From the NCBI GenBank assembly GCA_947034885.2, contig OX344757.2:24732001-24796000 (forward strand): 64,000 nucleotides of DNA, written 5' to 3'. Each line of letters starts with the position of its first letter. Within the stretch, counting starts at the first letter, position 1. This document shows, piece after piece, positions 4,187 through 42,684 of this stretch. The position numbers and the translations under genes are program-made. The notes under the pieces were generated by a model. It was given only the letters and a program-made list of their open reading frames with translations. It searched no databases and was not told where the DNA came from. The DNA is from Thuidium tamariscinum (taxonomy: Eukaryota; Streptophyta; Bryopsida; Hypnales; Thuidiaceae).

Positions 4187-4194
4187 ATGGAGAC
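4187..4194. repeat. Left 8-bp target duplication of the giant hAT
   Basis: ATGGAGAC is the last A1 sequence before the transposon end CAGGGTTG at 4195. The identical 8-mer follows the right end at 24663-24670. In A2, which lacks this insertion, the corresponding coding sequence is continuous. Confidence 0.93.
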
Positions 4195-4199
4195 CAGGG

Positions 4200-4745
4200 T
4201 TGCTTCCGTCGCGTCACGTTCGTCCGTCAGGATGTCCGTCCGCTGACGTGACGGGGAGCCGAGCATCCGTCAGGATGAAATTCACGACAGAATCCGCGAC
4301 AAAGGATGAAAAATCGTGACAGCGGTCGTGGACGCCCTCATGGACGACCTCCGTGGACGGCCTGAAAGGACGTGCTCGGTGGACAGTTCCGATGGACAGT
4401 CCTGGCTGACTGGACGGCTTGGATGGACACTCTGGGTTCTGCGGACGGTCCGGATCCGGTGGACGGTTTTAGGGGACGGCCCCGCTCGCGGGGTATGGAC
4501 GGCCCCGATGGACAGGACGTCCAGTGGACGGCCTGGACGGACGCCTCCAGATCGACGGTCTGGGTACGGTCTACGCTTGGGAAGGACGGCTTGGATTGAG
4601 AGGAAGGTTGGACGGCCTAGGTTTGATGGACGGCCTGGCCGTGCCGTTGACGGTCAGGATGGACGGCCTAGGTTCGATGGACGGCCTGGCCGTGCCGTTG
4701 ACGGTCAGGATGGACGGCCTGGGCTCCGTGGACTGGAACTCTTTA
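4200..4745. repeat. Left terminal GACGGCC-motif cluster
   Basis: A GC-rich block dense in GACGG, CCGTC, GGACGGCC and GTCCGTC words starts inside the left transposon end. Near 4613-4715 it contains a tandem pair of a 51-bp unit. Such subterminal motif arrays are the usual binding sites for hAT transposases, which is inferred here. The first 130 bp closely match the right end of the derivative at 31997-32658. Confidence 0.8.
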
Positions 4746-4859
4746 TTTGTAAGACTTAAAAGTCTGAGTTCATATTCGCAATCAAAATTTTCTCATTAGT
4801 CTATGAGGTTTAACCATCTCTCAAAAAATAATTTCCCATGGTTTTGTATTTTAGGCCTT

Positions 4860-6130
4860 CCATAGTCTAAATATAATATATATTCTGTATTTAAAAAAAA
4901 GATTTTGGTGGTTTGAATCAAAAAAAAGGAAATGGTTTGAATGAAAATAACGTTAATGGTTTGGAATTGTGAATAAAAAAAAATGTAAAACTGGTTTTGA
5001 AAAAAAATGTGTTAATTGTTCGAATAAAAAAATTATGGAAATGGTTTGAATAAAAAAAACGTTAATGGTTTGAAATGTTGAATGAAAAAAAAATATAGAA
5101 AGGGTTTGGAAAAAAATGTGTTAATGGCTCGACCAAAAAAATTTGGAAATGGGTTGGGAAAAAAATGTGATTAGGGTTTGACTAAAAGAAATATGGAAAT
5201 GGGTTGAAATGTTGGAAAAACAAATTTAGAAATGGTTTGGAGAAAAAATGTGTTAATTGTTTGACTAGAATAAATATGGAAATGGTTTAGGGTAAAAAAA
5301 TGGCCAAGTTTTGAGTAAAGAAAAACGGTAATGGTATAGGGTGTTAGAAAGAAAAATATAGAAATGGTTTGGAAAAAAGATGGGTCAATGGTTCGACTAA
5401 AAAAAATATGGAAATGGTTTGAATCAAAGAAAAAGAAAAAGGAAATGCTTTGAATTAAAAAAAAGTTAATAATTTGAAATGTTGAATACAAAAAAATATA
5501 GAAATGGTTTGGAAAAAAAATGTGTTCATGTTTCGACTAAAAAATATATGAAAATGCTTCGAATAAAAAAAAAAATGGAAATGGGTTGAATAAAAAAAAA
5601 GGCAATGGTTTGAAAGGTTGGAAAAAAACTTATAGAAAGGGTCGTGAAAAAAAATGTGTTAATGGTTTGACTAAAAAAAATATGGAAATAAGTTGGAAAG
5701 AAAATGTGTTCAGGGTTTGATTAAAAATAATATGGAAATGGTTTGAAAAAAACAACTTTCATGGTTTGAAATGTTGAATAAAAAACATTTAGAAATGGTT
5801 TGGAAAAAAAATGTTAATGCCTTAATGGTTAAGGCTCAAATTGGAAATAGTTTGAATCAATAAAATGGGAATGCTTTGAATAAAAAAGAACGTTGATGGT
5901 TTGAAATGTGGACGACAAAAAAATATAGAAATGGTTTAAAAAAATGTGTTCATGGTTCGACTAATAAAAATATGGAAATGGGTTCAATCTAAAATATGGA
6001 AAGGGTTTGAATCTAACAAATGGAAATGGGTTAGGGTAAAAAAATGGTTATGGTTTGACATGTGGAAAAAAAAAATGTGGAAAAATGCGGTGGGAAAAAC
6101 TTGGGTTAATGGTTTGATTAAAAAAATTCG
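4860..6130 (+). repeat. AT-rich degenerate satellite
   Basis: Diverged tandem copies share the words ATGGAAATGGTTTGAAT, CGTTAATGGTTTGAAATGTTG and AATGTGTTAATGG with runs of A between them. The larger unit looks close to 100 bp, built from shorter related pieces. The block appears in the opposite orientation at 11535-11915, on the other side of the RING gene. Open frames inside it are repeat translations, not genes. Confidence 0.75.
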
Positions 6131-6509
6131 AAATGGTGGGAATCAAAAACAAAAGCATATATACTTGTGGCATATGTAAAAAATAGAATTTTGGCAATTT
6201 TTAAAAGTGAACTTACAAAATCTACTTTAAGTGAAAGTATGGCATTGGATTTAAATGAACTTGTTGCACATACATTTCAAGCAAACGTATTGAGTATTCT
6301 TTTCATTTGTTCATGGTTAAGTTTTCAGTTTAAGTGTTTAACAGACAATACAGTTGTACGAGAAAAATGAAAATGCTTCATTGCCCAAAAAATGTACTTT
6401 TGCAACATGAGCAACAAACGCTCGTAAATGGTCGTCATAGCCAAATACTATTTACAATACTAATATACTATACATCCGTCTAATGGCCTAACTCATCACC
6501 AGAAGGTAT

Positions 6510-8873
6510 TCAACCTTGTTCTGGTTCTACAATGCCTCTGCCTATACTATTTCTCAAAAAATCTTGCAATCCTTCTCTAGATTGCAAACTGTTCAACGTA
6601 GCCACTACGGTCCGATCATATCGATCGTGCAAGTAGGAAGAAATGGTTGACAACATTTGCACCTCATTGAACGTAGTGTCTTCGATGAACCTCATTTGTG
6701 CCTCATGATCCATGTCTTGGAGTATTCCGATAGGATTTCCACTGGAGTCAAAAACCACATTCTCTGGATGTGGTCGGCGCACGAACTCCTGTCGGTCCAA
6801 GTCCCAATGGCCACCAGCAAGTTGGCCAAAAAATACTCGCCGCCCTGGATCGCCCGCACTAATCAACTTCTTGCACACCTCCGTAATCTCCGCATCATCG
6901 TTCCACGGAATGTCTTGCACGCTACGCACGGCGAGGTGTCTACTGTCATGGCCCCACTTCCACATCCATATCATGTCATTACCCCAACTCCCTCTATTCT
7001 CATCGCCAGGCAAGTTCTCTTCGTTCAACTCGAAGTGTGGGGGCATGTAATCCTCCAACCCAAATTGGACGTACAACCGCCGGTGCAAAGGAGCCTTGCA
7101 TTGTGCGCACCGCTTTCTTGTGACCATGTGCGGAATGAGACATCCGGGGTGGTACATATGTCCACACGTTCCAAGGCAAAATCCACCCTCGGGTCCAAAC
7201 GGTTCCATGCAAATCGTGCACGTCGTTCCATCCTTCACAAACTCGGGAACTATGGGCCACAGTAAGGGGGCATTGCCTTCTCTATCCACGGGCCCGTATC
7301 GATATCTCGCGGTGTTGAATTGGAAGTCTAGATGCGGATGCCCGTCCCAATCAATGCTTGCATTATCGCGATTTGTAGGCAATGTAACTGGAAACATATC
7401 CTCCAGTCGGGCCCACGATGTCAAGCCAAAATAACGTTGGCTACCATCTCTAAATTGTGCAGCTATTCTCCTGACTTCACGCTGTAGTTGTGCGACCTCG
7501 TTCATAGCCAAAGTGCATGCCAATCTCATGTTGCTCATGGCAAGCAACTTTTGCTCCCTCGTAGTTGACGTTTGTTGCAACAATCTATCCTTCATGGCAT
7601 TTACAAATGCCAACTCGTCCTGTAGTCCCTCCAAAGCCGCTGATATAGTCTCCATGTTGGCCTTGGCCTCATTGCACTCGCCCTCTACACGCTCCGCTCG
7701 TGCCACAAGGGCATCGTATGCCACGCGCTCAACGCTTATGAACTCTTGGCCCAATGCATCTGTTGATTGGGTTGCCGCATTTGAACTCTCACCACGAAAA
7801 TGTGGTGTTGGGAATATACCATGAGGCCGCACCCGGCGCACCGTCAACGGGTCAACTGGCTCAATTAGACCATATGTGGCCCGCTCCACGACCTCATCCA
7901 ATGGTGGAGTGCCATCCGTGCTTTGGCGACGTTCACGTTCAAGCAAGTCAATGTTACTTGCTAGTAACTTAGCATTCGTTTCCTCCAAAGCCTTCACTCG
8001 TGCGTTGTGGGCTTGTACCTCCATCTCGTGCCTTCGCTCAGCTTCTGCACCATCCTCACGCAGCTTAATCACCAATGCACGTAATGCCTCTAATTCCCCA
8101 TTTGCTCCAAATACTTCATTAATTGTCATGGACGGGGGAATTGGGTGAATGGCGAGTGGCATGGGCTCGCTTGGACCGGCAATAGGCGCCTCCAATTCGG
8201 GAGCCACCGGATTTTGTTTGTTGGCGCCTTGAGGTGCATTGTCGACCTCCATGGGGTCTGCGGCCGCCGCTTCGTCCCCTTGTGCCCTAGCCACTCCTTC
8301 GCCCTCCAATTGCACTTCAGGATTTGGTGGAATTCTACGGCTTTTAGTAGGGAAACGGCCGCCCCGTTGTTTTGCCGGATACGTGTTCCAATCCACGTCC
8401 TTGCCCAAAAAAAACTCCGCATACGCCATTTGACACAATGCGAGGGTCCCATCCTTCTTCGAGAGGGTCCCCCAAAGTGCCAATGCCACCTCGGTCAACC
8501 GCTTCTTGAACGTTGGGTGTACGCAATACTTGATCAATGCAACGCCAGATCGCACTTGCGTCTCATTTCTCTCTCGTGGAAAATGGCGGTTGATGTGGGC
8601 CCAGTCCACGTATCTCTGACATGTGGTGCGGGTCCATAGCTCAAGCACCTGTTCCCACCCGTGCCCGGCCAAAACTTCACCAGTGTTGAAAGTCGCCCAG
8701 TCTACAGTGCTCCTGTTCCCACGACGCCTCCTGTGTGGGGGTTCACCTTCATGGGTTACCATCTCCTGGTTTTCTACCACTGGGGGGTGATTTCCAGCAA
8801 TTACCACCTCCTGGTTCTCTGCCATGGGGGGGTTCTCTACATGTAGTACCATCTCTCCAGGGTTTAAGGCCAT
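6510..8873 (-). CDS. RING-H2 and coiled-coil protein carried by the giant hAT
   Basis: The gene is a single open exon of 787 codons from ATG 8871-8873 to the stop at 6510. Upstream in-frame codons begin with GTG, and a CAG/G acceptor-like site directly precedes the ATG, so a 5' UTR intron is possible. Regions: a Trp-rich conserved-looking block (about 45-165); a low-complexity Pro/Glu linker; coiled coils (about 255-320 and 370-480); a C3H2C3 RING (about 551-595) with CTICMEPF, CGHMYHPGC and CAQC supplying all eight zinc ligands; and a C-terminal domain of about 190 residues. RING-H2 proteins usually act as E3 ubiquitin ligases, so a role in modifying transposition proteins or host silencing factors is inference. 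The frame is intact, and the gene lies inside the transposon with a motif cluster upstream of its TATA box. A captured host gene is the alternative. Confidence 0.85.
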   Translation of the reverse strand: MALNPGEMVLHVENPPMAENQEVVIAGNHPPVVENQEMVTHEGEPPHRRRRGNRSTVDWATFNTGEVLAGHGWEQVLELWTRTTCQRYVDWAHINRHFPRERNETQVRSGVALIKYCVHPTFKKRLTEVALALWGTLSKKDGTLALCQMAYAEFFLGKDVDWNTYPAKQRGGRFPTKSRRIPPNPEVQLEGEGVARAQGDEAAAADPMEVDNAPQGANKQNPVAPELEAPIAGPSEPMPLAIHPIPPSMTINEVFGANGELEALRALVIKLREDGAEAERRHEMEVQAHNARVKALEETNAKLLASNIDLLERERRQSTDGTPPLDEVVERATYGLIEPVDPLTVRRVRPHGIFPTPHFRGESSNAATQSTDALGQEFISVERVAYDALVARAERVEGECNEAKANMETISAALEGLQDELAFVNAMKDRLLQQTSTTREQKLLAMSNMRLACTLAMNEVAQLQREVRRIAAQFRDGSQRYFGLTSWARLEDMFPVTLPTNRDNASIDWDGHPHLDFQFNTARYRYGPVDREGNAPLLWPIVPEFVKDGTTCTICMEPFGPEGGFCLGTCGHMYHPGCLIPHMVTRKRCAQCKAPLHRRLYVQFGLEDYMPPHFELNEENLPGDENRGSWGNDMIWMWKWGHDSRHLAVRSVQDIPWNDDAEITEVCKKLISAGDPGRRVFFGQLAGGHWDLDRQEFVRRPHPENVVFDSSGNPIGILQDMDHEAQMRFIEDTTFNEVQMLSTISSYLHDRYDRTVVATLNSLQSREGLQDFLRNSIGRGIVEPEQG

Positions 8874-9073
8874 AGTACCTGCACACAATGCCACAACACG
8901 GTATGTATGTACAGATGACTATGCTCTGCTTCCTGTTGCGTGAGGGCAACTGGAATGTGGCAAAGCAATAGCCAAATGCTTGACTTCCTCCCGAATTGCA
9001 ATGCAAAGCTTTTTTCAAGCTAGGACAGAGCAACTCAAGAGAGAAAGCAAGGTTAATTGTGGCTGAATTTGGG

Positions 9074-9080
9074 ATTTATA
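9074..9080 (-). promoter_or_regulatory. TATA box of the RING gene
   Basis: On the minus strand this reads GAGTATAAATCCC, about 200 bp upstream of the ATG. The GACGGCC-motif cluster begins roughly 70 bp further upstream, the same arrangement as at the other two genes of the transposon. Confidence 0.6.
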
Positions 9081-9139
9081 CTCCCCATTACCAAGCCTCG
9101 TTAGGAGTGTTAATTTGTGTCTAATCACATCGCCATGCA

Positions 9140-9930
9140 CCACCTGGAGCCGTTGATGCGGACGGCCATCGACGGCTGGGGCGTCCAGGGAGCGTCGACG
9201 GAGGTTCGGGAGGCCGTCGACAGCTTCGGGATGACGTCACAGAGGCCGTCCACATGTCCGGCGCCGTCAACGAGTTCGAAAACACTCATGAGTTCGAAAA
9301 TCCATAATTACTCCGCCGAATTGCAAATTCGATGGCCCAAAATGGCTCTTCGTGACGGCCTGCCCGTGGTCTTGGACGGCCACTGTTCCGTTGTGGACAG
9401 CCTACCCGGACAGGTCGACGCTCCGGCCCGCAGCCAAATTCTTTGCGGACGGCCTGCCCAGGTCCTGGACGGGCCCGTGTTGCTGGACGGTTTTCTGGAC
9501 GCCCTCCGTCCCCGTGACGGCCTGCCCAGGGCCTTGACGGCCAGGGAGGACTGACCCCTCTATTGCCCCTCCGGAGGGTAAATGTAAAAAATTCCCCCCT
9601 AATTTGTGCCGATTAAATTTTAGATTTCAACACGTCCCCTAGCTAAATCGAGGTCTCTGATTCCAAATAAGAATTCAGAATTTGCAAAAAAGAATTTGTG
9701 TGAAAAATAAAAGAAATTCCAGGGTTTTCTGCAAGGGTAAAAAAGGGGCAATAGAGGGGTCAGTCCTCCCTGGCCGTCCTCGACAGGCCCGTCTTCCTAG
9801 ACGGTTTTAGGGACGCCCTCCGTCCCCGTGACGGCCTGCCCAGGTCCTGGACGGGCCCGTCTTCCTGGACGGTTTTGTGGACGCTCTCCGTCCCCGTGAC
9901 GGCCTGCCCAGGTCCTGGACGGGCCCAATA
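9140..9930. repeat. Internal GACGGCC-motif cluster upstream of the RING gene
   Basis: Two GC-rich blocks (9140-9560 and 9770-9930) dense in GACGG and CCGTC surround a short AT-rich segment. A unit of roughly 85 bp containing CCGTGACGGCCTGCCCAGG recurs near 9450-9550, 9790-9860 and 9860-9925. The vocabulary is the same as at the transposon ends. Confidence 0.75.
9536..9778. repeat. 34-bp perfect inverted repeat around an AT-rich core
   Basis: The arms at 9536-9569 and 9745-9778 are exact reverse complements (left arm begins GACGGCCAGGGAGGACTGAC). The arms include a CAGGGAGG/CCTCCCTG pair like hAT ends, but no direct 8-bp duplication is seen because the flanks are inverted too. It may be a foldback insertion or an inverted duplication. 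Confidence 0.7.
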
Positions 9931-11530
9931 GGTGGGCCCAATATATACTGAATTTCAATTAGGCAGGTGGAATCCAATTAGACAGCCAGGATCCAATTAC
10001 GCAATTGGTATTCATTTAGGCAGTTGAGATGCAATAAGTTGTAAGACAGCAGAATTTTAATGTGGGTGAACTGGTGAAGATTGCCAATGCAGTACCTGTA
10101 TTCTGTAATTTTTATTGGAGCTTAGTGAGTTAACATTCATAGCTTGCATTTCTTTTTAAAAAAATTTGGGATTCATTCATGGTTGTGACAAGTGTGTGAC
10201 TCATTCAGATCTTGTATTTCTTTTTAAATTTTTTTGGGATTCATGATTGTGACAAGTGTGTTAGCCATGTATGCATGGTAGGAGGCAAAGATTGCACTTA
10301 TTTAAATTAAGAGTTGATTTGCCTTTTTCGTGTATGTCTTTAGATGAAAATATTTTTAGTTTTTTTTTCAGTCAAGGAGAAATAGATGAGGAATCTAATA
10401 CAAGTTGTTTCATATTTTTTGGAAGAAAAATTGAATTAATTATTAATTTTCAAACACAATTTGTCATAGGACCCTATTTGTGATCAGTAAGCCTTGAAAA
10501 TCTATACATGCACAGTTTCTAAAAGAATCTGGTTTGGTGAATAAACTAGTAATGCAACATGTAAAAAATGGTTTGAAATGGTTTCTAAATGTGTCCCTTT
10601 CAAAAACTGAAATGAATTCTTCAATTAATCATTATTTCAAAACAATTTCACATTTGAAAGAAGGTAGTTTAACAACCATTTTTTATTTTGAATAAAATTA
10701 GTAGACACCTATAAGTACACTAAGTTACGATTGAATCCATTGTAACTCTAAAACCATCCATTCATATAGTAAAAATCAAATCTTAGCATGCTTCAATATA
10801 ATCCACAATTAGTTTCCTCACAATGAGCTTTCCAATTCAGATTTCAGACCCTCCTATAGTCCTATTAGGCAGATAAAAAAGCCTGCATAGTTTATGAACC
10901 TCCGTGTGAGCTTCCTACCATAATAGTTGATTTGAGAGCAAGAGGTCCTTGAACTTCTTCATTTTAGATGTTAGAATGGATTTGCAGACTTACTGATACT
11001 TGTGTTTTTAAACACAATCGGCTTATTAAATTCCCTAAGTTTTCTTATTATATAAATGAATGTGAATATACTCTTGTACCTTTAAATTGGTTTTAAATAT
11101 TGCATTAATTAGGATTGTATACTATAGTTTAATTTCTCTATTGTGTGCTTTGTTTTCTTATAAATGGTGAAATATAAATAGTTGTAGCTTTGATTTTTGA
11201 TTTTCAAACTCTTTAGTGGCATATAGATAGCATATGCTGTGCGTTTCACCATGTTCTTAGTTCATCAAAATCCTTGAAGCTCACATGTTTCCTTGTATAC
11301 AATGTTTTTGATCTTCTCAATATTTTGTAATTATGAAATGTAGAAAAAAATAGGGTATTCAAAAATAGTCCTTCAAAGAATTTACAAAAGAAAATAGGGT
11401 ACTCTAAAATACACTCCGGTAGCTTTATTTCTACTAATAGGGAGGGAAAAAAACATGAGAAGGACATAAATACCCCCCCATTAAATACCCCATTATCGCA
11501 TGTGGTTACCAAAAGATAAAGGGGGTGAAC
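9931..11530. other. AT-rich interior of the giant hAT; no gene seen
   Basis: Short degenerate direct repeats occur near 9950-10030 (CCAATTA words) and 10131-10262 (two copies of a unit of about 70 bp containing GATTCATG and GTGACAAGTGTGT). Open frames are short and without recognisable domains. Confidence 0.5.
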
Positions 11531-11534
11531 CCCC

Positions 11535-11915
11535 GAGTCTGTTATTCAAACCATTCCCATTTTTTTTATTCAAACCATTTCCACATTTTTTTCCAAACCG
11601 AATCATTTCCATATTTTTTTAGTCGATCCATTAACCCATTTTTTGGTCCAAATCCCTTCTATATATTTTTGCCCAACACCCAAAACCATTAACGTTTTGC
11701 TTTATTCACACCACTTCCATTTTGGGGATTCAAACCTTTTCCCTATTTTTTTTAATTGAACCATTAACACATTTTTTTCCAACCCATTTCCACATTTTTT
11801 TTATTCGAACAGGGCTCGACAATTTCTTTCCAAACCCTTTCTATATTTTTTTGGGGTAACTTTTTTAACCCTTTGACGTGTTTTTTTGGTTCAAACCATT
11901 AACACACTTGCGGAA
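11535..11915 (-). repeat. AT-rich satellite, opposite orientation
   Basis: The words ATTCAAACCATTTCCA, CCATTAACACATTTTTTTCC and AACCATTAACGTTTT are reverse complements of the 4860-6130 satellite. The two arrays therefore flank the RING gene and its motif cluster as a large, diverged inverted pair. Confidence 0.75.
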
Positions 11916-13339
11916 TTCTAACTCTTTCTTCTAGGGTTTATCATACACTTCGGCAAAGAGAGGATTAGAGCGGTTTAGGATTCCGCAGAAGAGTCTGAAT
12001 TCTGAAAATTGGTTGGTGCCCACTAACGGAGTCTTGCTTGCCAGTGCCCCCGTCCTAAACTCCTAATTAGTGCTCGCCATTCACTTATACTTTCATAACT
12101 CATAGTTTCATAACTCATAAGTAGAGTACATGACTACATGACCAGAATATTATGCAATATAGTAATATACTAATATGTACATGTAGTACTAATCTAATTT
12201 CCTAAAAAATACATGCCTAGTCGGATGGCTCCCGAATTTAAAATTGAGAAGTTTAAATCCCTACATATCCGTAGGGCAACTTCTAAAATTTAGGGTCCAT
12301 CACTTCAGCCATTCTCGATATGAGATGAAGCACTGGAAGGCAATGTAAAATTTTAGCCGTGTACATTACACACTACCCACCAACAAGTTTAGGATCATCC
12401 AATTCTGCCATTGAAACGAATTTTGCATAATATAATCAAGCATACCAAATGTGGATTTCACATAAGTCAAATTCAGTATTTGGTGAATTGTTTCATTCAA
12501 AACTCATGGTTTAGCATGATAATTGATTATAAAACATTGGTGATGAATTAGCATTAATTTGCAAAGAGGAGATATGTAGGAAACATCCATATGCACATCT
12601 TTCATACCAAAAAACATCCTAGATTCCTAGTAAGTTACAACAATATAATTGGGTTGAAGAATTCAATTAGGCATTTTATATGACCCCATTTTGTAAAATA
12701 GATGTATGTACGCTTGAATTAGATTTAGGCAAAGTCATTGTACGGAAATGATTTAAGTTCCTCAAGGAGTTATAGTGTGACCATCAAATAGCAAATGCTA
12801 ATTAAGCCGGATTAAATTATTAAAATTAGCTCCTATTTCCTAAATTTACGGGGGAGAATGAAATTAGATGGAAAGGGAGGAAGTAGAGCTTTTTGACGAC
12901 ACAACTGAGAACGGATACGCATCAACCGAAGAGGTATGTGTTTAGACTAGAACCAATAAGTTTAATCATTTCATGTTATTTCTTTTAATTACTTCAAAAT
13001 TTGCAAAATTAGATTGACGCTAGGAAAATAAAGATCAATTACCGAATACAAATTATAATGCACTTCTTAAGTTATTAAATTACTAAACTAGACATTTTAC
13101 CCTCATTTACGCAAAAGTAAAAAGGAACTTAAACCCTAAACCCTAAACCCTAAATCCTAAAACCTTCAGTTGGGCAAGGGCTTTAGGCTGGGTTTTTGAC
13201 CTTCTCAAAATTCAGTGTCAGCCCTTAGATGGGCGGTTTCTGGCCTGTTACCTTATTACCTTGTAGAGGAATTTCAGTTGCACGAGGCTTGCCATTAAGT
13301 CTTCGCTGGCATCTTCACCACCCTGTGCTTCCCCGACGA
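11916..13339. other. AT-rich stretch with a short telomere-like run
   Basis: No gene is seen. At 13131-13162 there are three to four CCCTAAA units, the plant-type telomere word. They are far too few for a telomere and are read as interstitial or chance repeats. Confidence 0.5.
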
Positions 13340-13640
13340 TCCCCTTAATGGTTCAGAATTCCCGGGACGCCCTGTGGGGTCGCGTGGACGGCCTCGTTCC
13401 ACAACGGACCCCCGAATTCCCAGGACAGCTTGTGCGTCCTGTCGACGGTCTCGCAGTTCCTCGACGGTTTCCTGGACGGCTTCGAAATTCCCGGGACGGA
13501 TGGGTGCGTCCCGTCGACGGCCTCATCGTCCTCGACATTCCCCTCGACGGCTTCAGCGCGTCCCCTCGACGGTCTCGGAGTTCCCGACACCCCTCGACGG
13601 CTTTCGAGTTCCTTGGACGGATCGGTCGTCCATGCGACGG
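13340..13640. repeat. Internal GACGGCC-motif cluster upstream of the kinase-like gene
   Basis: A GC-rich block with many GTCGACGG, GGACGGCC, CGTCGACGGCCTC and TTCCCGACA-type words ends 12 bp before a TATA box. It matches the vocabulary of the terminal clusters and of 9140-9930. Confidence 0.75.
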
Positions 13641-13652
13641 CTCGCCAACGAC

Positions 13653-13660
13653 TATATAAG
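13653..13660 (+). promoter_or_regulatory. TATA box of the kinase-like gene
   Basis: TATATAAG lies about 200 bp upstream of the ATG and immediately downstream of the GACGGCC cluster. A short leader follows, with a 52-nt intron ending just before the start codon. Confidence 0.7.
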
Positions 13661-13801
13661 GTGGGCCAGGTCCCCCACTCTGCACGAGTCTCTCCTACTC
13701 TGACGGTGCTCTCTTGCCCTGGATTGGTTGCAGTCCTTGCTTGGGAGCGCGGGTGCTTGCGAGGAGGCTCGGCTGAGGAAGGGGGGATAGTTTTCACATT
13801 T

Positions 13802-13853
13802 GTGAGTACTGAACCCTAATTCCTTGATTTTACCATCGCATATTTTTTTTCAG
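13802..13853 (+). other. 5' UTR intron of the kinase-like gene (52 nt)
   Basis: A donor GTGAGT at 13802 and an acceptor with a T-run ending in CAG at 13853 lie directly before aATGGAC. The size is very short for plant introns but similar to the 58-nt intron in the transposase gene of the same element. Confidence 0.55.
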
Positions 13854-13854
13854 A

Positions 13855-15516
13855 ATGGACGGGCGAGGTGCGTCGAAGCGCAAGGTTGATGAGTGGTTTT
13901 CAGGCATCGGAGATCCTGTTGGTGAGCAGTCTCCAGAATCCATTGACTGCGTATCAGAGGCAGTATTGGCCGGAGAAGGGGTCAGTGGTGCGGCTGGAGG
14001 AGAATCTTCGGGGGCCAAGAAAAAAAAGAGCAGGCGGAGGCACAAGGCTACGAATACAGACGACTGGCCAAGGAAGGCTGCGACCAGGAAAGTGCAGGAA
14101 GTGGCATTGGATTTTTTGGAGCAATATACGATTGCTCAATTGAATACGACCTACGTCTCGCGTGGATTGCAAGGGGTGGAGACAATTAAAAAAAAATTCA
14201 CCCACATGTTTTGGACAACAATGGGCGAGGATGAGTGGCTTGAAGATCGCACAAAGGAACACTTCCGTCGTTGGCTTGACGAACAAGTGCAAACTTGTGT
14301 TTTCAACATCGCCCAAGTCGCTGCATCGGTAAAGGGCTTCAAACAAGATGTAGCGCTGAAGCAACAAGCATTGCATTTGTTGCACAAAAAGGTGTATTGG
14401 TGGCATGACGCAATGCGAGCGCTGTCTTCCAGCAATATCCGCTCTGCCCCATGGTTTCAGCAGAGCCAAAGCTTGTCCCTAGGCCAAGCGGGTGCGGGAG
14501 GAGTGGTATTTCTTGAACGAGGAGTGGTGGTGGTTCCATTGTCAGGCCACAACAAACAAGGGGGGCACGGGAGGGTGCGTAAAGTGAGCCTCCAAAATTC
14601 AAGGCACATTCCCCCCATGATGGAATTGGCGGGCAAGACAGCCCTATATGTGGATCAATTGAAGAAGTCGCGGGAGAAGTTGTCCATCGAGGCTTTGGTT
14701 TGTCCATGTAATCATCCAAGGGTCATAAAATTTTTTGCTATAAATGACATGACCATGGAGTGTTATTCTCAATGGTGGAATGGAGGAACATTGGGAGCCA
14801 TGTTCGCATTGGACTAGAAAAACCGAGATTATGCTGAGATCGGGGAGCTTGCCTACCATGCAACTCCACAGACGATGCAAGAAGCCAAAAGACTCTTGGC
14901 TTATCGTAGAAACCGCACCGAGCTTGCATGGGCGTTAATTTGCATCGTGGATGCGGTGCAACAATCTTCGGTGCTCCACAACGACATCACGCCAGAAAAC
15001 ATCATGTTGCATTTTCCGAATGATGATGGGCGAACAGTGTGGATTGGGCTATGTGATTGGGGAATGGCTAGTCGTATCAATGAAGAAACCCATTCTTTGT
15101 ACCAGTTTCAATGTGCAAGCCAAATGCGGGCTACACGTCAGAAACGTTGGTGGGTGGCCCCTGAATTGATGTATGTTCCTGGAGAGGCGGGCACTTCGGT
15201 ATCCCCCACTCGTGCAGATGGGGCACCGTGTGTTAGTATACATACAGACGGATATGCTGTTGGGAAGCTTGCGGAGAAGATATGGAAGAAAGACCGCGAA
15301 AATACAGAAATGCTTCCCGACCATACAGCGTTTGGTACATTTCAAGCCACATTGGGCGAATTGTGCAAAGAGGACCCACTACAACGACGCATGGTTACGT
15401 ACGCCGTGGGACGAATTAGTGGCGCCCCCTTATTTTGGACTCCACCCGTGGATTGCTATCGCGAGGCCCGCAAGGAGCAAGCACTTCTACAAGAACAAGC
15501 AAGGAATGAAGATTAG
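13855..15516 (+). CDS. Protein-kinase-like gene carried by the giant hAT, one in-frame TAG
   Basis: There are 553 codons in a single frame from ATG 13855, broken only by TAG at 14815-14817 (codon 321); the same frame continues for 232 codons. The N-terminus has a basic, nuclear-signal-like run (KKKKSRRRHK) and a region of about 150 residues I do not recognise. The kinase-like domain covers about 230-510: glycine loop GGHGRVRKV, a Lys in ELAGKTA, catalytic loop HNDITPEN (Asp and Asn kept), CDWG where DFG is usual, WWVAPE as the APE site, and DGYAVGKL as subdomain IX. The residues expected for phosphotransfer are present. It would phosphorylate Ser/Thr or Tyr by family rule; its substrate is unknown. 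The TAG makes this copy a probable pseudogene unless it is read through or is a recent mutation or an assembly error. Confidence 0.8.
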
Positions 15517-15728
15517 AGAATAGTATTTTAGTGGCAATGTAATCGTAGACGTACCTTAGTACTTGCTTTTACCACAGTATAGTCCACGAACTTTGCGTCA
15601 CTGAATTTTGTACTAACTCCTTTTTGAAATAAATATATGTAAATATTTTTGTTCCATTCGAGTATGGTTCCGGTGAGTGGATTTGTGAGTAGTTCTGTCC
15701 CTTCGTAAATTTTGGACTGAATGCCATG

Positions 15729-16655: not shown

Positions 16656-17036
16656 TTCAGTACTTTCAATCATTTTCTCCATATTCCAGATTACATTTGT
16701 TTTCTTGTACATGGCAAAATCCATAATGATCTCAAAATATCCAAGCATGTAGGTAACCAGCTTCGAAGAATGAATCCAAATTTAAGAGTATAGAACACAT
16801 GGCAAACGACAAAGCAAATATTTCCATTTCTTGGGACAAATATCCATAAATGGATCCGTTGTTGCGTTGTAGAATTTGTGACATGTGAAGATAAAAAATT
16901 TCTACCCATGCGCCCTACATGAGCACAGGAAGCATGTGTAGTATTTATAATTAATGCCGAATTTCACATGCAAGGTATTCAGCCTTACACAATATTACAT
17001 AAGATGACATGGAGACATTTTTTTCCCTATATGCTC
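16656..17036. other. 3' flank of the transposase gene; nothing further seen
   Basis: About 380 bp of AT-rich sequence lie downstream of the transposase stop (minus strand), presumably its 3' UTR. No domain or repeat is recognised. Confidence 0.4.
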
Positions 17037-20000
17037 TCAACGTCTTGCACGTGTACGATTAAGAGCCATGCTCCTTGTAGCAGCCTCTCGCGTGGTTGCT
17101 TGATTGTCTTGAGGTGCAGGTGGAGGACCTCTACGAGTCCCTCTATAATCACTATCTCCCGGAACTTCACCATCTTCACCTATACTAGGACCCATGGATT
17201 CATCATCATGATTGGACGTTGCCCTACCGACTTCGCTTGGTGAGTTGTCAGGGCTGTCTGAGCCTTCACCTACTATAGAAGCCAATCTGCGGATTGTTCG
17301 CCCTCCTACTCCATCTCCAGCGGTATCCACACTGGGCCCCGTCGATCCAGGGAGAAGACCTTCGCGGAGAAATGGTATACTCGCCGCTTCTTCCCTTCTT
17401 AGCCTTCTACGTGTTCTTCTACTCACTCGTTCATTGGTAGGGCTTTCTTCACGTGGCCGCGGGCGTCGATTAGTAGTGTGTGTAGGCGGTGCAACGGGTT
17501 GTTCTGAGGATGGAGGTGCATTCCTTCGCTCGGTCATATTTAGAGTTGGGAAGAGACCGGCCAATCGTGTACCGACTGATGGAGTTTCTTGGTTGGGGCG
17601 GACTCTAGAAGATGAAGGCCGTGCTGAAATTTGGACGGGTGGATCATCCAAGCTAGGCGGTTGTGGTCGCACGCCGATCGTGTCTCGACGCAATGTGCGA
17701 AAGTCTATCTTGACACCAATGGGGGATCTGTGGCTACGAGTGTTCCGCGCCACTGGGGGATCTGTGGCAACGACCTCATCTTCGCCTTGTCTTTCTACCA
17801 CAACGACATGTTCATGTCTCCGGGTACGCATTTCTTCTTCAATCGGCCCTATAACCGGCGAAGGTGGGGCTTCAACCCCTTCGTTTTGATTTCCACCACT
17901 TGACCCCGCAATCGATGTACGTGGCATCCATGACGGACTGCCATCATTTCCCCCGTTGTCATTTCCATCCTCATCTCCCCCGTGGTCATTTCCATCATTA
18001 TCCGCGCCATCAAAGTCAAATACGGACTCGTCAATTAGGGGACCCCTTTCTTGCCTTTCACCCAAAGGCCGAAATGGTGGATCATCATCGCCATTGGAAC
18101 TGTCGTCTGAGTCATCGTTGTTAGCGTCTGACATAACCGAACCACGATCCAAGCCATCTGATTCGGTTGTCATGGAATCTTCGGACAACATGTTCTCAGT
18201 GTACCATCGTGCTGCATCCGCCGCACCCCTTTCCCTGAGAGTCCTCGAATTGGTATAAATGTAAACCAATTCCTCCGCGCGCTCAGATGTCAATCTGTTG
18301 CGAGACTTGCTGTGGACAAATGAATACATGCTCCAATTGCGTTCGCATGATGATGCGGAACATACTTGTGCGAGGATCCTTCTTGCAATAGGTGCAAGCG
18401 TATGAGCAGCGGCTCCGAGAAGATCCCACCATTCATGCGGCTCCAAATTCAAAGTATTCACATCGGGAAGTCCAGCGAACATGCCTTGACGGTCTCGAAA
18501 GGATTGGTACTCAAACAAAGCGGCTGCATATCCCAACCCTCTAACTGCCAATTTGCGTAGTACTCTAAGAATGGCCTCCTTTGCCTCGTTATCATCTATT
18601 AGTATAATTTCATCAAGGAGGAATGGATTGAGCAGGGCAGCTGCGTAGAGCAAATCGGTCTTCATCAAATCCCATCGTTCGTAAAACGCGTATTCAGCAC
18701 GGTCCGCATAATTTGCCTCCAATGAAAATGGTCGATTCCTCAAAGCCAAAACATGCTTTTCTAGCTTCTTCATCATGATCCATGCTTTGCCCATGACCGG
18801 ATGTTTTCCATCAAACTCTCGAAGAGCCACCAACACAGGCTCTACCATATGCACAAAGTTGAGACACCTCCTCCAAAACTCGTCCTTTCGAACCCTACGT
18901 CGAACCTTTTCTGCCTTATTGTGTATTGCAGCGTTCGAGGACCTCACATATTCGTTCCACTGCGGATCATGGACTGTAGATTCCACGGCTTCCTTGACCT
19001 CGGCCAAACGCTCGATCATAAGGAACATGGTCGCAAAACGTGTCTCAATGGGATTCTTCAACATGAGGTTAGGAGAATTGTCGTACGCGCAGTCTAGCAG
19101 AAAGCACCTTTATCACACCCAAACGTGATAATATGACACGGAATATCGTCCCAGGAGATTCTAGACGTTACTAATAGTTGCGTTTTCCGGTTTCTAGGTT
19201 TCTCGGATCAAAACACCCCAAGTTACTACTCTTAATCCGGAATACCAACTTATCTTCCAGACTGTTTTTCAGGATCCGTCTTTTCTTTCCGAATCCGTCT
19301 CTCCACTATTACCGGATTCCTTTCTCAGATCCGGATTTCACCCGGATCCGTCCCAATCCGGAATCCGGTTCCGTCATTCAATAATTGGTTTTTGATACCC
19401 CTGTTTTACCCTCAGGGAGTCCTCTCTTGATCTTTAGAGGGGTAGGGACTTACCACTCGTACACCTCACGCTCTCTTCTCTCAAACAAAAATACATGAAA
19501 ATACCAAAATATATCCGGTGTTGTATTAGGGCCGGATTCGGATCCTCACAACTTCCCGGATAGCTCTAGGCCAATCCGGTTAGCAAGTCACTCAGGACTA
19601 ATTCACTTGCCCTTACTACAACGACAGATTCGAAAACCCTTAGACCCGAAAGGACGTATTTTCCTAGTTCTTCGGATCGACTCAGTGGTTGGCAGACCTT
19701 CCGATGGACAGAACTTTCCTATGGCGGCTGCTTAACTCCGCACGAATCCGCCCCTACGGTTCTGGAACCTCCTCCTCGTCACTCCTGGACTCACACCGGA
19801 TCACCGCTCCGGTGAATTAAAGGTTCCACGCTCAAACTCACGATTCAAGATCCTAACCCTCGGAAGTTGGTCACTCAGTTCGGATTTCAAGTGCCTCAGA
19901 ATCCGGATTCCTCCTCACCCTTCCCTCTTGCCTCTCAACACTTCAATGAACACACCAAGAAGAGACTCAAACGCAAGTCAGAGCTAAAATGTCCATCCGC

Positions 20001-23000
20001 CGGCTCAAATTAAAGAAGGGAATGAAAATACAGTAGAATATGCACTAGGAGGGAATGACAGGCCAACTAACTTGCCTGCCCCTTAAAAGCCAAAATAACA
20101 ATGAAAGTCAAAGCCTAAAAACAGAAACGGAATGCCAACAAGGCAAAAGAAAATCCGAAATAACCAATCGGAGTCCAACCGGATTATCCGAAAAGGTTCG
20201 GTCAGTTGTCCCTAAAGTTCCGGATCGGGGCCCACATCCGGGAAATCCGTCCAGGAAACTTCCGTCCCAAAATCTCAAAAGCCTACCTAACTACTCAAAC
20301 CTTATCCTACTTACGCGCCCGCTTCGATGTCGCGCCCACGGGCGGAACTGAACTTCTTCGCGTTGCTGCCTTGGGAGGGGGGGCCTTCTTGGTGGCGGAT
20401 CGGGTCTGCCTCTTCTGAATCGGAACCGGTGGCGTTCCGCTGTCTTCCGTCGAAGTCTCCTCCGAATCCGCCTCGGAGCTTTCTGAATGCTTTACTCCCT
20501 GAAATCCGCCCTGCCCCCTAACTTCATCACGGATGGTGAGGGGCGGATTATCTTCCCTGTCCGAGTCATCCAAGATGACTGTCTTGCTGCGCGGATCCTT
20601 ACCCGGAACCTTGTCTGGCTCGTTCATGTGGGCGAACTTCTCCGGATTCTCCCTGGCCGGATTCGCCAGGGCCTTCATCCGGATCTCCAGGTCGAGCCGT
20701 GGTGATGCCCTCTTCTCTTGCGGATCCGTAGGTGTGTTGGACGGTCCGGCTGCATTCGGATCCGATCCGAGCTCGCCGAGGTTCTTCACGACCGGCGAGT
20801 TTCCGAGTAGTTTTCGATCCGTCGACATCCGTCCTTGCGCACTGGGGCTGAAGTCCGTAAACACCTGCTGGTTGAGCAAGCTCGACAGTCCTTCCTCCAA
20901 CTCCGGATTGAGAGCCCCTATTAAGGCCCTCATCTCTTTCAACACCCCTTCCATCTTGGCCTGATAATCCACCAAGATGGTGATGACTTTCGATCCGGTG
21001 ACGTGCCCTTCCGTCATCAGCCGGGCGGAAAACAGTTTCGCTTTGATCACCGTATCCGCCGGCTGGGCCACCAACTCTTGCAGGTTCCGGACCAAGGAGG
21101 TGGCCTCCACGATCTTCCCGTTGGCGACACTGAGATCACTCTCCAGGTACGTCACCGTGCTCTGGAGTCCATTCCGCTCTTCTTCCGCCTTCCGTCGTCC
21201 CTCTTCAGCTATTCGGGCCAGATCTTCCGCCTGTCGGATTTTATCCGTCTGATTCCGGGCCACGTCCTCCCACTTCCGGATCTCTTCGTCTTTCTTCTGC
21301 AACACCTCTTGAGTCGGAAGACGGTTGAGGATTTCCGGAATGTCTTCGATCTTCACTGCGCCCAACTTCGTGACAATCTGTTCGAGTATCGCCTCATATT
21401 GGTTGTTGTCTGCGTGCGCCATCATGGCGTGACGGATGATGGTGTCGAAGTGGTTCCGCTTCTTCTTCCCCAGGGTTGATTCGGGTGGATCCGTGTCTGG
21501 GTGTCCTCTCTTATCCGGCGTTGTGGACTTCTTCCGTTCCGGCTTTCGTTCCAACTGGCTGACCGGCTTCTGCTCTTCCGGGTCCTCGTCCATCGGCTCG
21601 TCTTCCGGATCCTCCGGCTCCTTCTCCAACTCATCCGTCAAGCCATACTTGAGGATCTGAACTCCCATCTCATAGCGGAGGAGTTCCGGGCCACTCAGTA
21701 CATCATGGTGGTGGTACAGGTGGAAGAGATAGCCGCTGATAGTGCTGGTCTTCTCCCGTCCCACATGCTCGGCTAGCCGGTTAACTACCCACTGGAGGAC
21801 TATACCCCAGTTGACTATCCGTTTCTCAAAACACCCGAAGATGGTGTTCGCTACCGTTACGGTGACACGGGTAGGCTTTTCCGGATAGAGGATGGGAATC
21901 AAGAATTCCAACATCCGTCTATGCCGGTCGTTGGTGCAATCCGGAACTGAGTATCCGTCCTTAGGGTGGGGCGGATTCCGGAACTTGTTAACACCAAACT
22001 TGTCCGTCCGGGGAGCTAGACCTAATCCGGTTTTATCAAAACCGTATACATTCGCCCAGATATCCGGCGTCCAGGCACTCGGTCTACCCCTCACTGTGAG
22101 TTCGTACTGATTCGGAACTCCTGAGAGGATTTCCTGTACTATCTCGTCACTCTTCACACTCCAAGGGCGCCGGATCAACCCATGACACCCTAGGAAGACT
22201 AGATCATCTTCTAACTCCTTCCGATGCTGCGGATCGGAAGGGATGACTGGCGAAATTGCCTTGGCCGTCACTACCGCTCGCTTCGGATTGGAGGAACTCG
22301 CCATCTCTCCGCCCAAGTCGGAACTTGTCGGTGCGGTCGGCACCGACCCGGAACTAAACCCGGAACCGATCTCTACTGCTCACCACTCTTTCTCTCTCTA
22401 TACGCGCTCCAAAACCTGCACACAAGCCGTACCTCGATTTGCCAAATCGAAAAGGAAAAAATGAAGTGGAGAGGAAGGGTTTATATACCAGTCGGTACCC
22501 TACGTTCCCAGTTCCCCTCGGAACGGCGCGACGTTCCCCGGCCGTTACGCTAGTTTCCGTAGGTCGGCGGCATAGACCCGTAGGTGCCGACCATCCGGAA
22601 CTACCTCGGATCCGTCTTTAGGTATACCGGATCCGTTCTTGACAACATCGGATCCGTCTTTGACAATATTGGATCCGTCTCTCCAAGTTCCGTCTTCCGG
22701 GAAGTTCCGTTCCGGATATTGAGGAATCCGGATCCGGAAACTTATGCCCATAGACCGGAAATTCACCTTGGTCAATCCGGTTCAAACGGATCCCAAGGGA
22801 AGAAGACCCTAATTATCTTCTTTTCGCCATATCTAACCCTAAAATTTTGAAAAATTGAGCTTACTCTATATACTATCTTCCTTTTTTTACTTACCTGATA
22901 TTTCCGGACTGCGACAAGAATGTCGTCGGAAAATGGCGAGTGGCATGTGATGCGTGCGAATGAATTTCACGATTGATTTTGCTTTCTTCACCATTTTGAC

Positions 23001-24176
23001 CACCCAAAGTTGCTTGCCCCAATCTTCAAGTAGAAGGTCAAGTGCATGCGCGGAACAACCTTGGAAATATAGGTGAGGGAATTCGCGAGTAATTTGAGTA
23101 CCAGCCAAACGCATGTTTGGCGCATTGTCCGTACAAACTTGCACCACATTCTGTCCCCCCATCGCGTCAATGTAATCGATCATGCGATTAGCCACATAAA
23201 CAGCGTCTTTGCTTTCGCCTGTAGTGTCCACCGATCCCAAAAATACTTCTCCACTCGTGCACGACAACATTACATTGATCAATGGCCGATGGCTGACATT
23301 GTCCCATCCGTCAGAACATATAGTGACACCGTACTTGTGGATAGGCCCCCTTGTCTTCTCCGCTACCAGTGCAGCCACTTCCTCCTTTGTTGATGTCATG
23401 AGCTTCGTACGTATGGCATTGTAAGGTGGAGGTTTGTAAAGAACTCTGGACTCGGAGGTTGATTTCACGGCATCCACAAAAGCGGGGTGTCTCACCACAT
23501 TGAATGGGATATTTGCTTCGTAGAAAAACTTTGCCCACTTCTTGTCTAGTACTTGCTTTTTGGATGTGTCCATCCCTTCTTGTACGGATAATTGCCTCAG
23601 CGGTCGACTATGGGTCGAAGAAGGGACAGGCGCCTCTGATGATCGAACTTGAGAATTTTGGCCCAAAGTATTTCCTCCCCTCCACTAATTGAGATTGAAG
23701 CATTGGGTAATTCTTGATCACGTACCACCCTCGTTGGATTCGATGACGGTGATGTCACTTCCACATCATGTTCCTCTTCGTCTTCGGAGACCGTAGGAAC
23801 ATTCCCCCCACAATTGAAAAACATAGCCTTCATTGCTGCACTGGCCTTGTTGCACATTCTCACTCCGGGGAGGGTGTCATTTCGTCTATAACCCAAGTGG
23901 AAAAGCAAGCGATCCTTGCGGTAACTAATCTTCGTTTTGCAGAACTTGCATTCTACTTTCCCAGGCTCTTGTAGCCTGTACCAGGGTTCCCATTGTGTCC
24001 TCCCCCCCTCCCATTGCTCCCACTGGTTCTTCACTTGAAACTGCACAAACAAAACAGGTTAGTATTCTGTTTGGATGTGATGTGGAAATAACACTTACTG
24101 CTTTCACAGCAAGTGTTCCTCCCACACTCTTCTTGGACTTCACTCTAGTGCAATGGCTATGTGCCAACCAGGTCAT
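17037..24176 (-). CDS. hAT transposase (BED, DUF659, hATC) with long acidic tail, split by element B1
   Basis: Exon 1 (24099-24176) starts MTWLAHSH; a 58-nt intron (24041-24098) joins in phase to exon 2, which encodes a BED-type zinc finger (CKFC...FHLGY). A frame change near 23690-23735 is either a very short intron or a frameshift. The DUF659 part follows to 22917 with catalytic-type Asp residues in CSDGWDN and CTDNAPN. B1 then interrupts, and the frame resumes at 19073 (SPNLMLKNPIETRF) through the dimerisation domain with ASSCERNWS supplying the expected Glu. After hATC (about 290 codons into the last part) comes an unusual tail of about 380 residues, first Asp/Glu-rich, then Arg-rich. It would cut and rejoin the CAGGGTTG ends. 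This copy works only if B1 is spliced out and the frame change is an intron. Confidence 0.85.
20307..22304 (-). CDS. Element B1 protein, intact (665 aa)
   Basis: The start chosen is ATG 22302-22304 (MASSSNPKR), also kept in B2 and B3; codons further upstream begin with GTG. The frame is uninterrupted. Conserved N-terminal domain (about 20-230): PHPKDGYSVPDCTNDRHRRM, VTVANTIFGCFEKRIVNWG, ISGYLFHLYHH. Then an acidic/Pro linker, a coiled coil (about 310-475), a polar region and a Ser/Lys/Arg-rich end (SKRARK). A and C elements encode the same layout with 30-50% similarity by eye. I cannot name the family; resemblance to plant transposon-associated ORF domains is only suggestive. It has no visible catalytic motif, and the layout would suit a structural, gag-like or nucleic-acid-binding role, which is inference. 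It is the only fully intact copy here, so B1 is probably the youngest. Confidence 0.85.
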   Translation of the reverse strand: MASSSNPKRAVVTAKAISPVIPSDPQHRKELEDDLVFLGCHGLIRRPWSVKSDEIVQEILSGVPNQYELTVRGRPSAWTPDIWANVYGFDKTGLGLAPRTDKFGVNKFRNPPHPKDGYSVPDCTNDRHRRMLEFLIPILYPEKPTRVTVTVANTIFGCFEKRIVNWGIVLQWVVNRLAEHVGREKTSTISGYLFHLYHHHDVLSGPELLRYEMGVQILKYGLTDELEKEPEDPEDEPMDEDPEEQKPVSQLERKPERKKSTTPDKRGHPDTDPPESTLGKKKRNHFDTIIRHAMMAHADNNQYEAILEQIVTKLGAVKIEDIPEILNRLPTQEVLQKKDEEIRKWEDVARNQTDKIRQAEDLARIAEEGRRKAEEERNGLQSTVTYLESDLSVANGKIVEATSLVRNLQELVAQPADTVIKAKLFSARLMTEGHVTGSKVITILVDYQAKMEGVLKEMRALIGALNPELEEGLSSLLNQQVFTDFSPSAQGRMSTDRKLLGNSPVVKNLGELGSDPNAAGPSNTPTDPQEKRASPRLDLEIRMKALANPARENPEKFAHMNEPDKVPGKDPRSKTVILDDSDREDNPPLTIRDEVRGQGGFQGVKHSESSEADSEETSTEDSGTPPVPIQKRQTRSATKKAPPPKAATRRSSVPPVGATSKRARK
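22481..22487 (-). promoter_or_regulatory. TATA box of element B1
   Basis: On the minus strand this reads GACTGGTATATAAACCC, about 180 bp upstream of the ATG. The same string is present in B2 and B3 (42677-42684). Confidence 0.65.
24041..24098 (-). other. Intron 1 of the hAT transposase gene (58 nt)
   Basis: The donor is GTAAGTG, a perfect TACTAAC branch-point-like sequence follows, and the acceptor TTTGTTTGTGCAG comes just before TTTCAAGTG. Splicing joins ...LAVKA to FQVKNQ in phase 0, giving a start codon to the BED exon. Confidence 0.7.
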
Positions 24177-24225
24177 AAGAGCAGAGATCAGCAAGGAAAA
24201 GTGACCTTCAAATACACGGCTTGTG

Positions 24226-24232
24226 CTATATA
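24226..24232 (-). promoter_or_regulatory. TATA box of the transposase gene
   Basis: CAGTATATAGC on the minus strand lies about 50 bp upstream of the exon 1 ATG and directly inside the right terminal motif cluster. Confidence 0.6.
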
Positions 24233-24239
24233 CTGTGAA

Positions 24240-24660
24240 GGCCTGGCAGCAGTCGTCCAATCGACGGCCTGTCCGTTGGTGCACTGTGGACAGCCGCGGA
24301 CGGGACGTCGTGGCCGTCCCCGCAGACGCTCTGGCCGTCCAGCGGACGTCCCACTGTCCAGACGACGGCCTGGCCGTCCCCGCAGCGTGGACGGACTCTG
24401 GACGCCGTGACTGTCCACTGAACAGAAAACTGTCGAGGCGACGGCCTGGCCGTCGCGCCTAAACCCTAAAGCCGCGGACGCTGTGTCCGTCCACGCGATG
24501 GCCAGTCGTCGAGGCGGCCGACAAGCCGTCTGCGCGTTGTCGACGGACTTCATCCGCGCTGTCGACGATGCCGTCAACATTCGGGACGGCCTCTGACGTG
24601 TCCTGCCGCGTCATGACATCCCGACGGGAAAAGCCCACGTCACGTCAAGATAGACAACCC
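24240..24660. repeat. Right terminal GACGGCC-motif cluster and transposase upstream region
   Basis: This GC-rich block is dense in GACGGCCTG, CCGTCC and GTCGACGG. It doubles as the promoter-upstream region of the transposase. The outermost 110 bp or so closely match the left end of the 31997-32658 derivative (shared string GTCAGAGGCCGTCCCGAATG, minus strand). Confidence 0.8.
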
Positions 24661-24662
24661 TG

Positions 24663-24670
24663 ATGGAGAC
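24663..24670. repeat. Right 8-bp target duplication of the giant hAT
   Basis: ATGGAGAC immediately after CAACCCTG is identical to 4187-4194. A1 coding sequence continues from here (GCACTAGAGAAGTGGCG). Confidence 0.93.
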
Positions 24671-31800: not shown

Positions 31801-31988
31801 TTGCTTTTGATGAAGCTCCTTCTTCAGGGCTGAGACCTGGTTAGTTATCCGGGTTACCTCTTCCTTGTCTCGACTCTCATGTGCCTCTCGGATCAATTCT
31901 CCCAATATCTCCATCACCTTGGAGGGCGGAATACTGCCCAAGGCTCTGCACACTCCCTACAATACCTTTCTTTCCTCCAAGTGGTGCC

Positions 31989-42600: not shown

Positions 42601-42676
42601 CCTACGGAAACTAGCGTAACGGCCGGGGAACATCGCGCCGTTCCGATGAGAACCGGGAACGCAGGGTACCGACTGG

Positions 42677-42684
42677 TATATAAA
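42677..42684 (+). promoter_or_regulatory. TATA box of element B3
   Basis: GACTGGTATATAAACC is identical in position and sequence to the B1 promoter, about 175 bp before the ATG. Confidence 0.65.

What the first reader, a model, noticed from the sequence alone, without database searches (positions are those of the whole stretch)
4195..24662. A 20-kb hAT transposon that moved as one unit with RING and kinase-like genes
Seen: CAGGGTTG inverted ends, an identical 8-bp duplication (ATGGAGAC) 20 kb apart, and a host reading frame (element A1) that resumes at the right flank. Inside are a hAT transposase plus two unrelated regulatory-type proteins. Known: most hAT elements are a few kb with one or two transposition genes. 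Inference: this is a giant, multi-gene hAT whose accessory genes may modify the transposase, DNA repair or silencing.
Basis: partly seen in the sequence, partly recalled or inferred. Interest (0 to 1): 0.92.

Follow-up and report, generated by a model that had tools for sequence, protein, structure and literature searches.

The report
Giant hAT transposon with accessory genes
A large cut-and-paste jumping gene carries, besides its own transposase, a RING-finger gene and a protein-kinase gene, and many near-identical copies in the same genome keep these genes together, which suggests that some jumping genes of this kind bring their own regulatory toolkit.

Summary
The element at 4195-24662 has exact CAGGGTTG/CAACCCTG ends and an exact 8-bp duplication; two paralogous host copies are uninterrupted there. 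In the source genome (363 Mb) 39 of the other 39 scored left-end matches are 97-98% identical. I read 7 of these 39: 7 of 7 are 16.7-17.2 kb and carry RING, kinase and transposase regions; duplications are exact in 6, one mismatch in 1. Of 78 listed RING loci, 57 have a listed kinase 6.4-8.3 kb away; chance gives 0.27. The window copy is 20.5 kb only because a 3,838-bp transposon sits in its transposase gene; 7 of 7 others lack it. The promoter regions of all three genes share a GACGG repeat cluster with both transposon ends. Differences among copies lean synonymous for RING and transposase, not significantly for the kinase. My text searches listed no giant hAT with such genes. What the RING and kinase proteins do is inferred only; the RING match lies just under Pfam's cut-off, but its eight zinc ligands are invariant in 5 of 5 sequences.

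The parts
4187..4194 (.). left copy of the 8-bp target-site duplication ATGGAGAC
4195..24662 (.). the whole hAT element of the window (20,468 bp, including a 3,838-bp nested transposon)
   Evidence: ends and duplication; seven colinear copies elsewhere
4195..4760 (.). left end with a GACGG repeat cluster (22 GACGG)
6510..8873 (-). RING-H2 protein gene, open; ORF stop to stop is 6510-8918, first ATG taken as start
9075..10000 (-). RING promoter region: TATA-like box at 9080 and a GACGG cluster (25 GACGG in 9081-10000)
13200..13658 (+). kinase promoter region: GACGG cluster (12 GACGG in 13200-13652) and TATA-like box at 13653
13855..15516 (+). protein-kinase gene with one in-frame TAG at 14815-14817 in this copy
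17037..19073 (-). 3' part of the transposase gene (hAT dimerisation domain and a long C-terminal tail)
19079..22916 (-). nested transposon, 3,838 bp, ends TGTCG/CGACA, 5-bp duplication AGAAT at 19074-19078 and 22917-22921, ORF of 690 codons; absent from 7 of 7 other copies read
22922..24058 (-). 5' part of the transposase gene (DUF659); frame broken in this copy
24227..24662 (-). right end, also transposase promoter region: TATA-like box at 24232 and a GACGG cluster (15 GACGG in 24233-24662)
24663..24670 (.). right copy of the target-site duplication ATGGAGAC
31997..32658 (-). miniature relative with the same ends, duplication TTCTGAAG, GACGG-rich (28 GACGG)

Best explanation
This is a giant hAT DNA transposon family of about 17 kb with three genes of its own: a hAT transposase (single frame of up to 1061 codons), a RING-H2 protein and a protein kinase. 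Shown: the three genes lie between one pair of ends, have spread together into many near-identical copies, and each begins just behind a cluster of the GACGG repeat that also fills both ends. Inferred: the transposase cuts and pastes the unit; it (or a host factor) binds the GACGG repeats both as subterminal end sites and as promoter elements, so that occupancy of the ends and expression of all three genes are tied together; the RING protein works as an E3 ubiquitin ligase and the kinase is active, and they act on host silencing, repair or cell-cycle proteins, or on the transposase, so that so large a unit can amplify. The copy in the window is a decayed member: transposase frame broken and invaded by another transposon, one stop in the kinase, RING open.
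For: Ends, duplication and two empty sites. 39 other left ends at 97-98% among 40 scored of 311 candidates. 7 of 7 copies read are colinear over the whole length with own 8-bp duplications, 6 exact and 1 with one mismatch. RING-kinase linkage at 57 of 78 listed RING loci against a shuffled mean of 0.27; 24 loci with RING, kinase and transposase all listed, 9 of the 24 stop-free in all three. Transposase has DUF659 and hAT dimerisation domains; its only 4 matches among solved structures are transposases, two of them named Hermes, weak at E 2e-4 to 4e-4. Eight zinc ligands of the RING invariant in 5 of 5 sequences; relatives in other genomes or metagenomes, 4 for RING and 12 for kinase. GACGG clusters at both ends and before all three genes, none of 2000 resamples as high in any of five stretches, recurring in 7 of 7 copies. 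Ratio of nonsynonymous to synonymous below expectation, RING 0.63 and transposase 0.54.
Against: The kinase ratio (0.66, p 0.077) is not significant, its stops among singletons (5 of 64) are no rarer than expected (6.4%), and it is open in only 3 of 7 copies read and 52 of 79 scored. In the transposase the few shared differences are all nonsynonymous (5 against 0). The RING match is just under Pfam's cut-off (26.9 of 27.3 bits). Linkage of RING and kinase with a hAT was not tested in any other genome (searches found nothing). Lists are capped and the 7 copies read are not a random sample. No protein activity, expression or transposition was tested.
Confidence: 0.7

Rival explanations
1. Passenger genes: RING and kinase were host genes captured by a hAT and hitch-hike without use to it, in the manner of Pack-type transposons; any synonymous bias is a remnant.
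For: The kinase is open in only 3 of 7 copies read and shows no significant constraint among copies. Accessory genes of unknown use are known in other giant elements (PMC12477816, passages).
Against: Both genes are full length with their own promoter-like regions that share the element's end repeat; RING is constrained among copies and relatives of similar length exist elsewhere; searches of the genome with remote relatives listed only loci that look like this family, though the lists are capped and not every row was checked.
Confidence: 0.2
2. Composite element: RING and/or kinase belonged to another transposon that once inserted into a hAT, and the composite then amplified.
For: Nested insertion is common here: a 3,838-bp transposon sits in the window copy and some linkage distances are longer by 2-4 kb.
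Against: A scan inside the element for further hAT ends with duplication found only the outer pair; a looser scan gave one poor pair, 10455-14299, with 14-bp ends of weak match, taken as chance. The promoter regions carry the hAT's own end repeat.
Confidence: 0.08
3. Artefact: the two ends belong to different elements, or the structure is an assembly error.
For: None found.
Against: Seven colinear copies on six contigs with different duplications and two paralogous empty sites.
Confidence: 0.01

Closest known systems
hAT superfamily elements (Ac, Tam3, Hermes) and Gulliver of Chlamydomonas
   Same: 8-bp duplication, short CAGGG-type ends, DUF659 and hAT dimerisation domains, subterminal repeats
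   Different: usually one gene and a few kb (recalled); the longest plant hAT consensus in PMC6027215 is Gulliver, 7144 bp (passages); here about 17 kb with RING and kinase genes
Giant KDZ, EnSpm and Sola-1 elements of algae and fungi
   Same: 10-30 kb, accessory genes, nested insertions, transposase often broken in single copies (PMC12477816, passages)
   Different: other transposase superfamilies; the one accessory protein described there is a ParB-like/DNA methyltransferase fusion, not RING and kinase; their nested insertions are generally shared among copies, here private to the window copy among 8
ToxhAT / ToxTA of wheat-pathogenic fungi
   Same: 14-kb element with cargo, once called hAT (PMC12506042, passages)
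   Different: TA duplication and 74-bp ends; its authors place it in Tc1/Mariner, probably non-autonomous

Membership tests
hAT superfamily | 8-bp target-site duplication | tested here: met
   window and 6 of 7 copies exact, 1 of 7 with one mismatch
hAT superfamily | short terminal inverted repeats of CAGGG type | tested here: met
   CAGGGTTG/CAACCCTG in the window and 7 of 7 copies; fits the plant pattern [T/C]AGNGNNG quoted in PMC6027215
hAT superfamily | transposase with hAT dimerisation domain | tested here: met
   Dimer_Tnp_hAT 1e-9 and DUF659 4e-36 in P0130, above cut-off; weak matches to Hermes structures
hAT superfamily | DDE catalytic residues | tested here: inconclusive
   CSDGWDN, CTDNAPNM and SASSCERNWS look like the three motifs (recalled), but no residue-level alignment to Hermes was made
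Giant KDZ or Starship elements | KDZ transposase or tyrosine recombinase (DUF3435) | tested here: not met
   no such domain in the ORFs scanned from the element; not every small ORF was scanned
ToxhAT / ToxTA (Tc1/Mariner type) | TA target-site duplication | tested here: not met
   8-bp duplications
Pack-type capture element | fragments of host genes with a parent copy outside the element | tested here: inconclusive
   genes look full length; no outside parent listed with remote queries, but lists are capped
RING E3 ligase | eight zinc ligands in C3H2C3 order | tested here: met
   C567 C570 C585 H587 H590 C593 C604 C607 invariant in 5 of 5; Pfam score 26.9 bits, cut-off 27.3; ligase activity not testable here
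protein kinase | kinase domain with Lys, HxD, DxG and APE motifs | tested here: met
   Pkinase 35.8 bits, cut-off 31.7; AGK, HND, CDWG and APE in the window and most of 12 relatives; P0119 has HNN, P0124 lacks the C-terminal part; activity not tested

The most novel reading that the evidence does not exclude
A DNA transposon with its own regulon: one repeat (GACGG) serves both as transposase-binding end repeat and as promoter element of three genes, and the RING ligase and kinase form a self-encoded module that disables host silencing or repair checks so that a 17-kb hAT can burst to a hundred or so copies.
Probability: 0.3. Interest if true: 0.88.

Novelty: new variant of a known kind. Interest (0 to 1): 0.72.

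Why it matters
hAT elements are usually a few kb with one gene (recalled; the longest plant consensus in PMC6027215 is 7144 bp). A young, many-copy hAT of 17 kb with a RING and kinase pair shows that this superfamily, too, can grow into multi-gene elements, as known for KDZ, EnSpm and Sola-1. It gives a testable case of a eukaryotic transposon that may encode its own counter-defence by ubiquitination or phosphorylation, with copies in which all three frames are stop-free (9 of 24 fully listed loci).

Tried and rejected
Searches of viral contigs and of bacterial and archaeal genomes for relatives of RING and kinase found none, so linkage in other species stays untested. Rfam at its gathering scores found nothing in the window. 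The predicted structure of the RING protein is poor (mean pLDDT 45.8), so no fold search was made. No solved structure matched the kinase relative P0117 by sequence at E 0.01. Rejected: assembly artefact; two unlinked ends; a further hAT nested inside the element. A first thought of a 2-bp duplication for the nested transposon was wrong; its ends lie further out, with 5-bp AGAAT. The copy number of 109 loci can count a copy with a large internal insertion twice, as it does not merge parts shifted by more than 1.2 kb.

Full report
What is there. The sequence shows CAGGGTTG at 4195, CAACCCTG ending at 24662 and ATGGAGAC directly outside both. In the window, of 11 pairs of near ends with a near duplication, two are perfect: this one and a 662-bp miniature element at 31997-32658 with duplication TTCTGAAG, whose ends match those of the large element (93% over 145 columns left, 82% over 137 columns right, the latter including some flank). 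The host is itself a repeat with four copies or parts in the window; two of the others are uninterrupted where this one is split.

Other copies. One search places the window at C9:24732001-24796000 of a 363-Mb assembly in 19 contigs. The left 300 bp gave 311 candidates, of which 40 were scored; the 39 besides the window are 97-98% identical. I read 7 of these 39: 7 of the 14 plus-strand hits among loci L002-L030, not a random sample. All 7 are colinear with the window element from end to end, 97-99% identical over most long blocks and 91-96% in the blocks at the repeat-rich right end; they are 16,726-17,200 bp long, and all 7 lack 19079-22916. In 6 of 7 the exact unoccupied sequence is seen at the nested site; in the seventh (C6:12747945) my text pattern did not match, but the alignment runs on. 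Duplications differ from copy to copy; 6 of 7 are exact, one has one mismatch.

Do the genes stay together? Protein searches of the genome scored 56 RING matches of 1327 candidates, 79 kinase matches of 639 and 43 transposase matches of 765; the right end scored 40 of 355 candidates. Merging the five lists gives 109 distinct loci (some copies with insertions may count twice), 24 with RING, kinase and transposase all listed, 9 of these 24 stop-free in all three. With two more searches by remote relatives there are 78 RING and 88 kinase loci, 57 linked in the expected orientation at 6.4-8.3 kb, against a mean of 0.27 and a maximum of 2 in 200 shuffles. 21 of 78 RING loci and 31 of 88 kinase loci have no listed partner. 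The lists are capped, so that is not evidence of absence: the kinase at C9:59476 is one of the 31, yet its copy, read in full, has an open RING frame.

State of the genes. RING is open in 6 of 7 read copies and in 43 of 56 scored; the transposase is a single open frame of 1061 codons in 5 of 7 (1032 in another, split in the last), and 34 of 43 scored are stop-free; the kinase is open over 560-567 codons in 3 of 7 and in 52 of 79 scored. The window copy keeps RING, has one TAG in the kinase where the closer relatives have E, Q, K, R or H, and has its transposase N-terminal parts in different frames, where copy C11:1948575 reads through. Intact copies exist.

Selection. Singleton differences among 8 copies (7 for transposase) were compared with the expectation from 99 intergenic singletons in 4,390 bp, CpG transitions kept apart. 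The nonsynonymous to synonymous ratio relative to that expectation is 0.63 for RING (53 to 36 observed, p 0.021), 0.54 for transposase (50 to 37, p 0.004) and 0.66 for kinase (36 to 23, p 0.077). Against: the kinase's stops, 5 of 64, are about the neutral share; in the transposase the shared differences are 5 nonsynonymous and 0 synonymous. The copies are young and the spectrum rests on few events, so these values are rough. In other genomes or metagenomes RING relatives (4 listed) are 42-53% identical over 79-93%, and kinase relatives (12 listed) 31-86% by the search's local alignments, 27-86% in alignment A2. No DNA of these was available, so no ratio could be computed across species.

A shared repeat. 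GACGG or its complement occurs 205 times in the window; 102 lie in five stretches totalling 3.0 kb: left end, right end, 0.9 kb before the RING gene, 0.45 kb before the kinase gene, and the miniature element. None of 2000 first-order Markov resamples of any of the five reaches its count; of eight control upstream stretches seven have no [CG]GACGG and one has 2, and that one overlaps the miniature element by 101 bp. For the longer GACGGCC 45 of 49 sites lie in the five stretches, but the kinase stretch is weak (2 sites; 14 of 1000 resamples as high); of 38 GC-rich control stretches one has a single site. TATA-like boxes lie just gene-ward of the RING, kinase and right-end clusters at 9080, 13653 and 24232. 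The clusters recur in 7 of 7 copies. That a hAT transposase can need subterminal repeats is reported for Kat1 (PMC4763223, abstract start in the listing); that it is so here, and at promoters, is inference.

The nested transposon. 19079-22916 has ends TGTCG...CGACA and a 5-bp duplication (and the sequence). Close to its ends are GTAAGT and TGCTAG; splicing there would leave 42 nt and join both transposase parts in frame across that site. This is read from sequence only. A relative lies at 42292-46090 (82%).

Standing. Membership in hAT is met on duplication, ends and domains, with weak support from Hermes structures. What is new is size and content. ToxhAT, once called hAT, has been reassigned by its authors (PMC12506042, passages). 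The longest plant hAT consensus in PMC6027215 (passages) is 7144 bp; I recall that Gulliver was first described as about 12 kb, which no call shows. Giant KDZ, EnSpm and Sola-1 elements with accessory genes are described in PMC12477816 (passages). In a review of giant transposons the word hAT was not found (PMC6431247, find only). Text searches listed no giant hAT with RING or kinase genes; the library holds open-licence papers only, so this is no proof. Most likely the element works as a cut-and-paste hAT whose transposase-bound repeats also drive its genes, with RING and kinase proteins acting on host proteins or on the transposase; this last step is inference with low certainty.

Noticed in passing
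19079-22916: The nested 3,838-bp transposon has splice-like sites near both ends (GTAAGT, TGCTAG); if spliced, 42 nt stay behind in frame with both transposase parts. Its relative at 42292-46090 keeps both sites. It encodes an ORF of 690 codons without a Pfam match.
   Followed up: partly
31997-32658: A 662-bp miniature element with the large element's ends, a long internal palindrome and duplication TTCTGAAG, inside another copy of the same host repeat.
   Followed up: partly
1-1527, 2376-25876, 30140-34368, 51729-54878: The host of the insertion is a repeat in several copies; the copy at 30140-34368 has 268-bp inverted ends at 98% identity. Its family was not determined.
   Followed up: no
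right end of copies, e.g. G000:C9:66143-66908: A tandem repeat of about 113 bp near the right end varies in copy number between elements.
   Followed up: no
13130-13165: About five tandem TAAACCC units (plant-type telomere motif, recalled) inside the element, upstream of the kinase gene.
   Followed up: no
54879: CAGGGTTG stands exactly where host copy 3 loses similarity; no partner end with its flanking 8 bp was found downstream.
   Followed up: partly
4909-6150 and 11542-11900: AT-rich minisatellite of TGGTTTGAATAAAAAAA type in the left part, and a shorter inverted relative between the RING and kinase genes.
   Followed up: no
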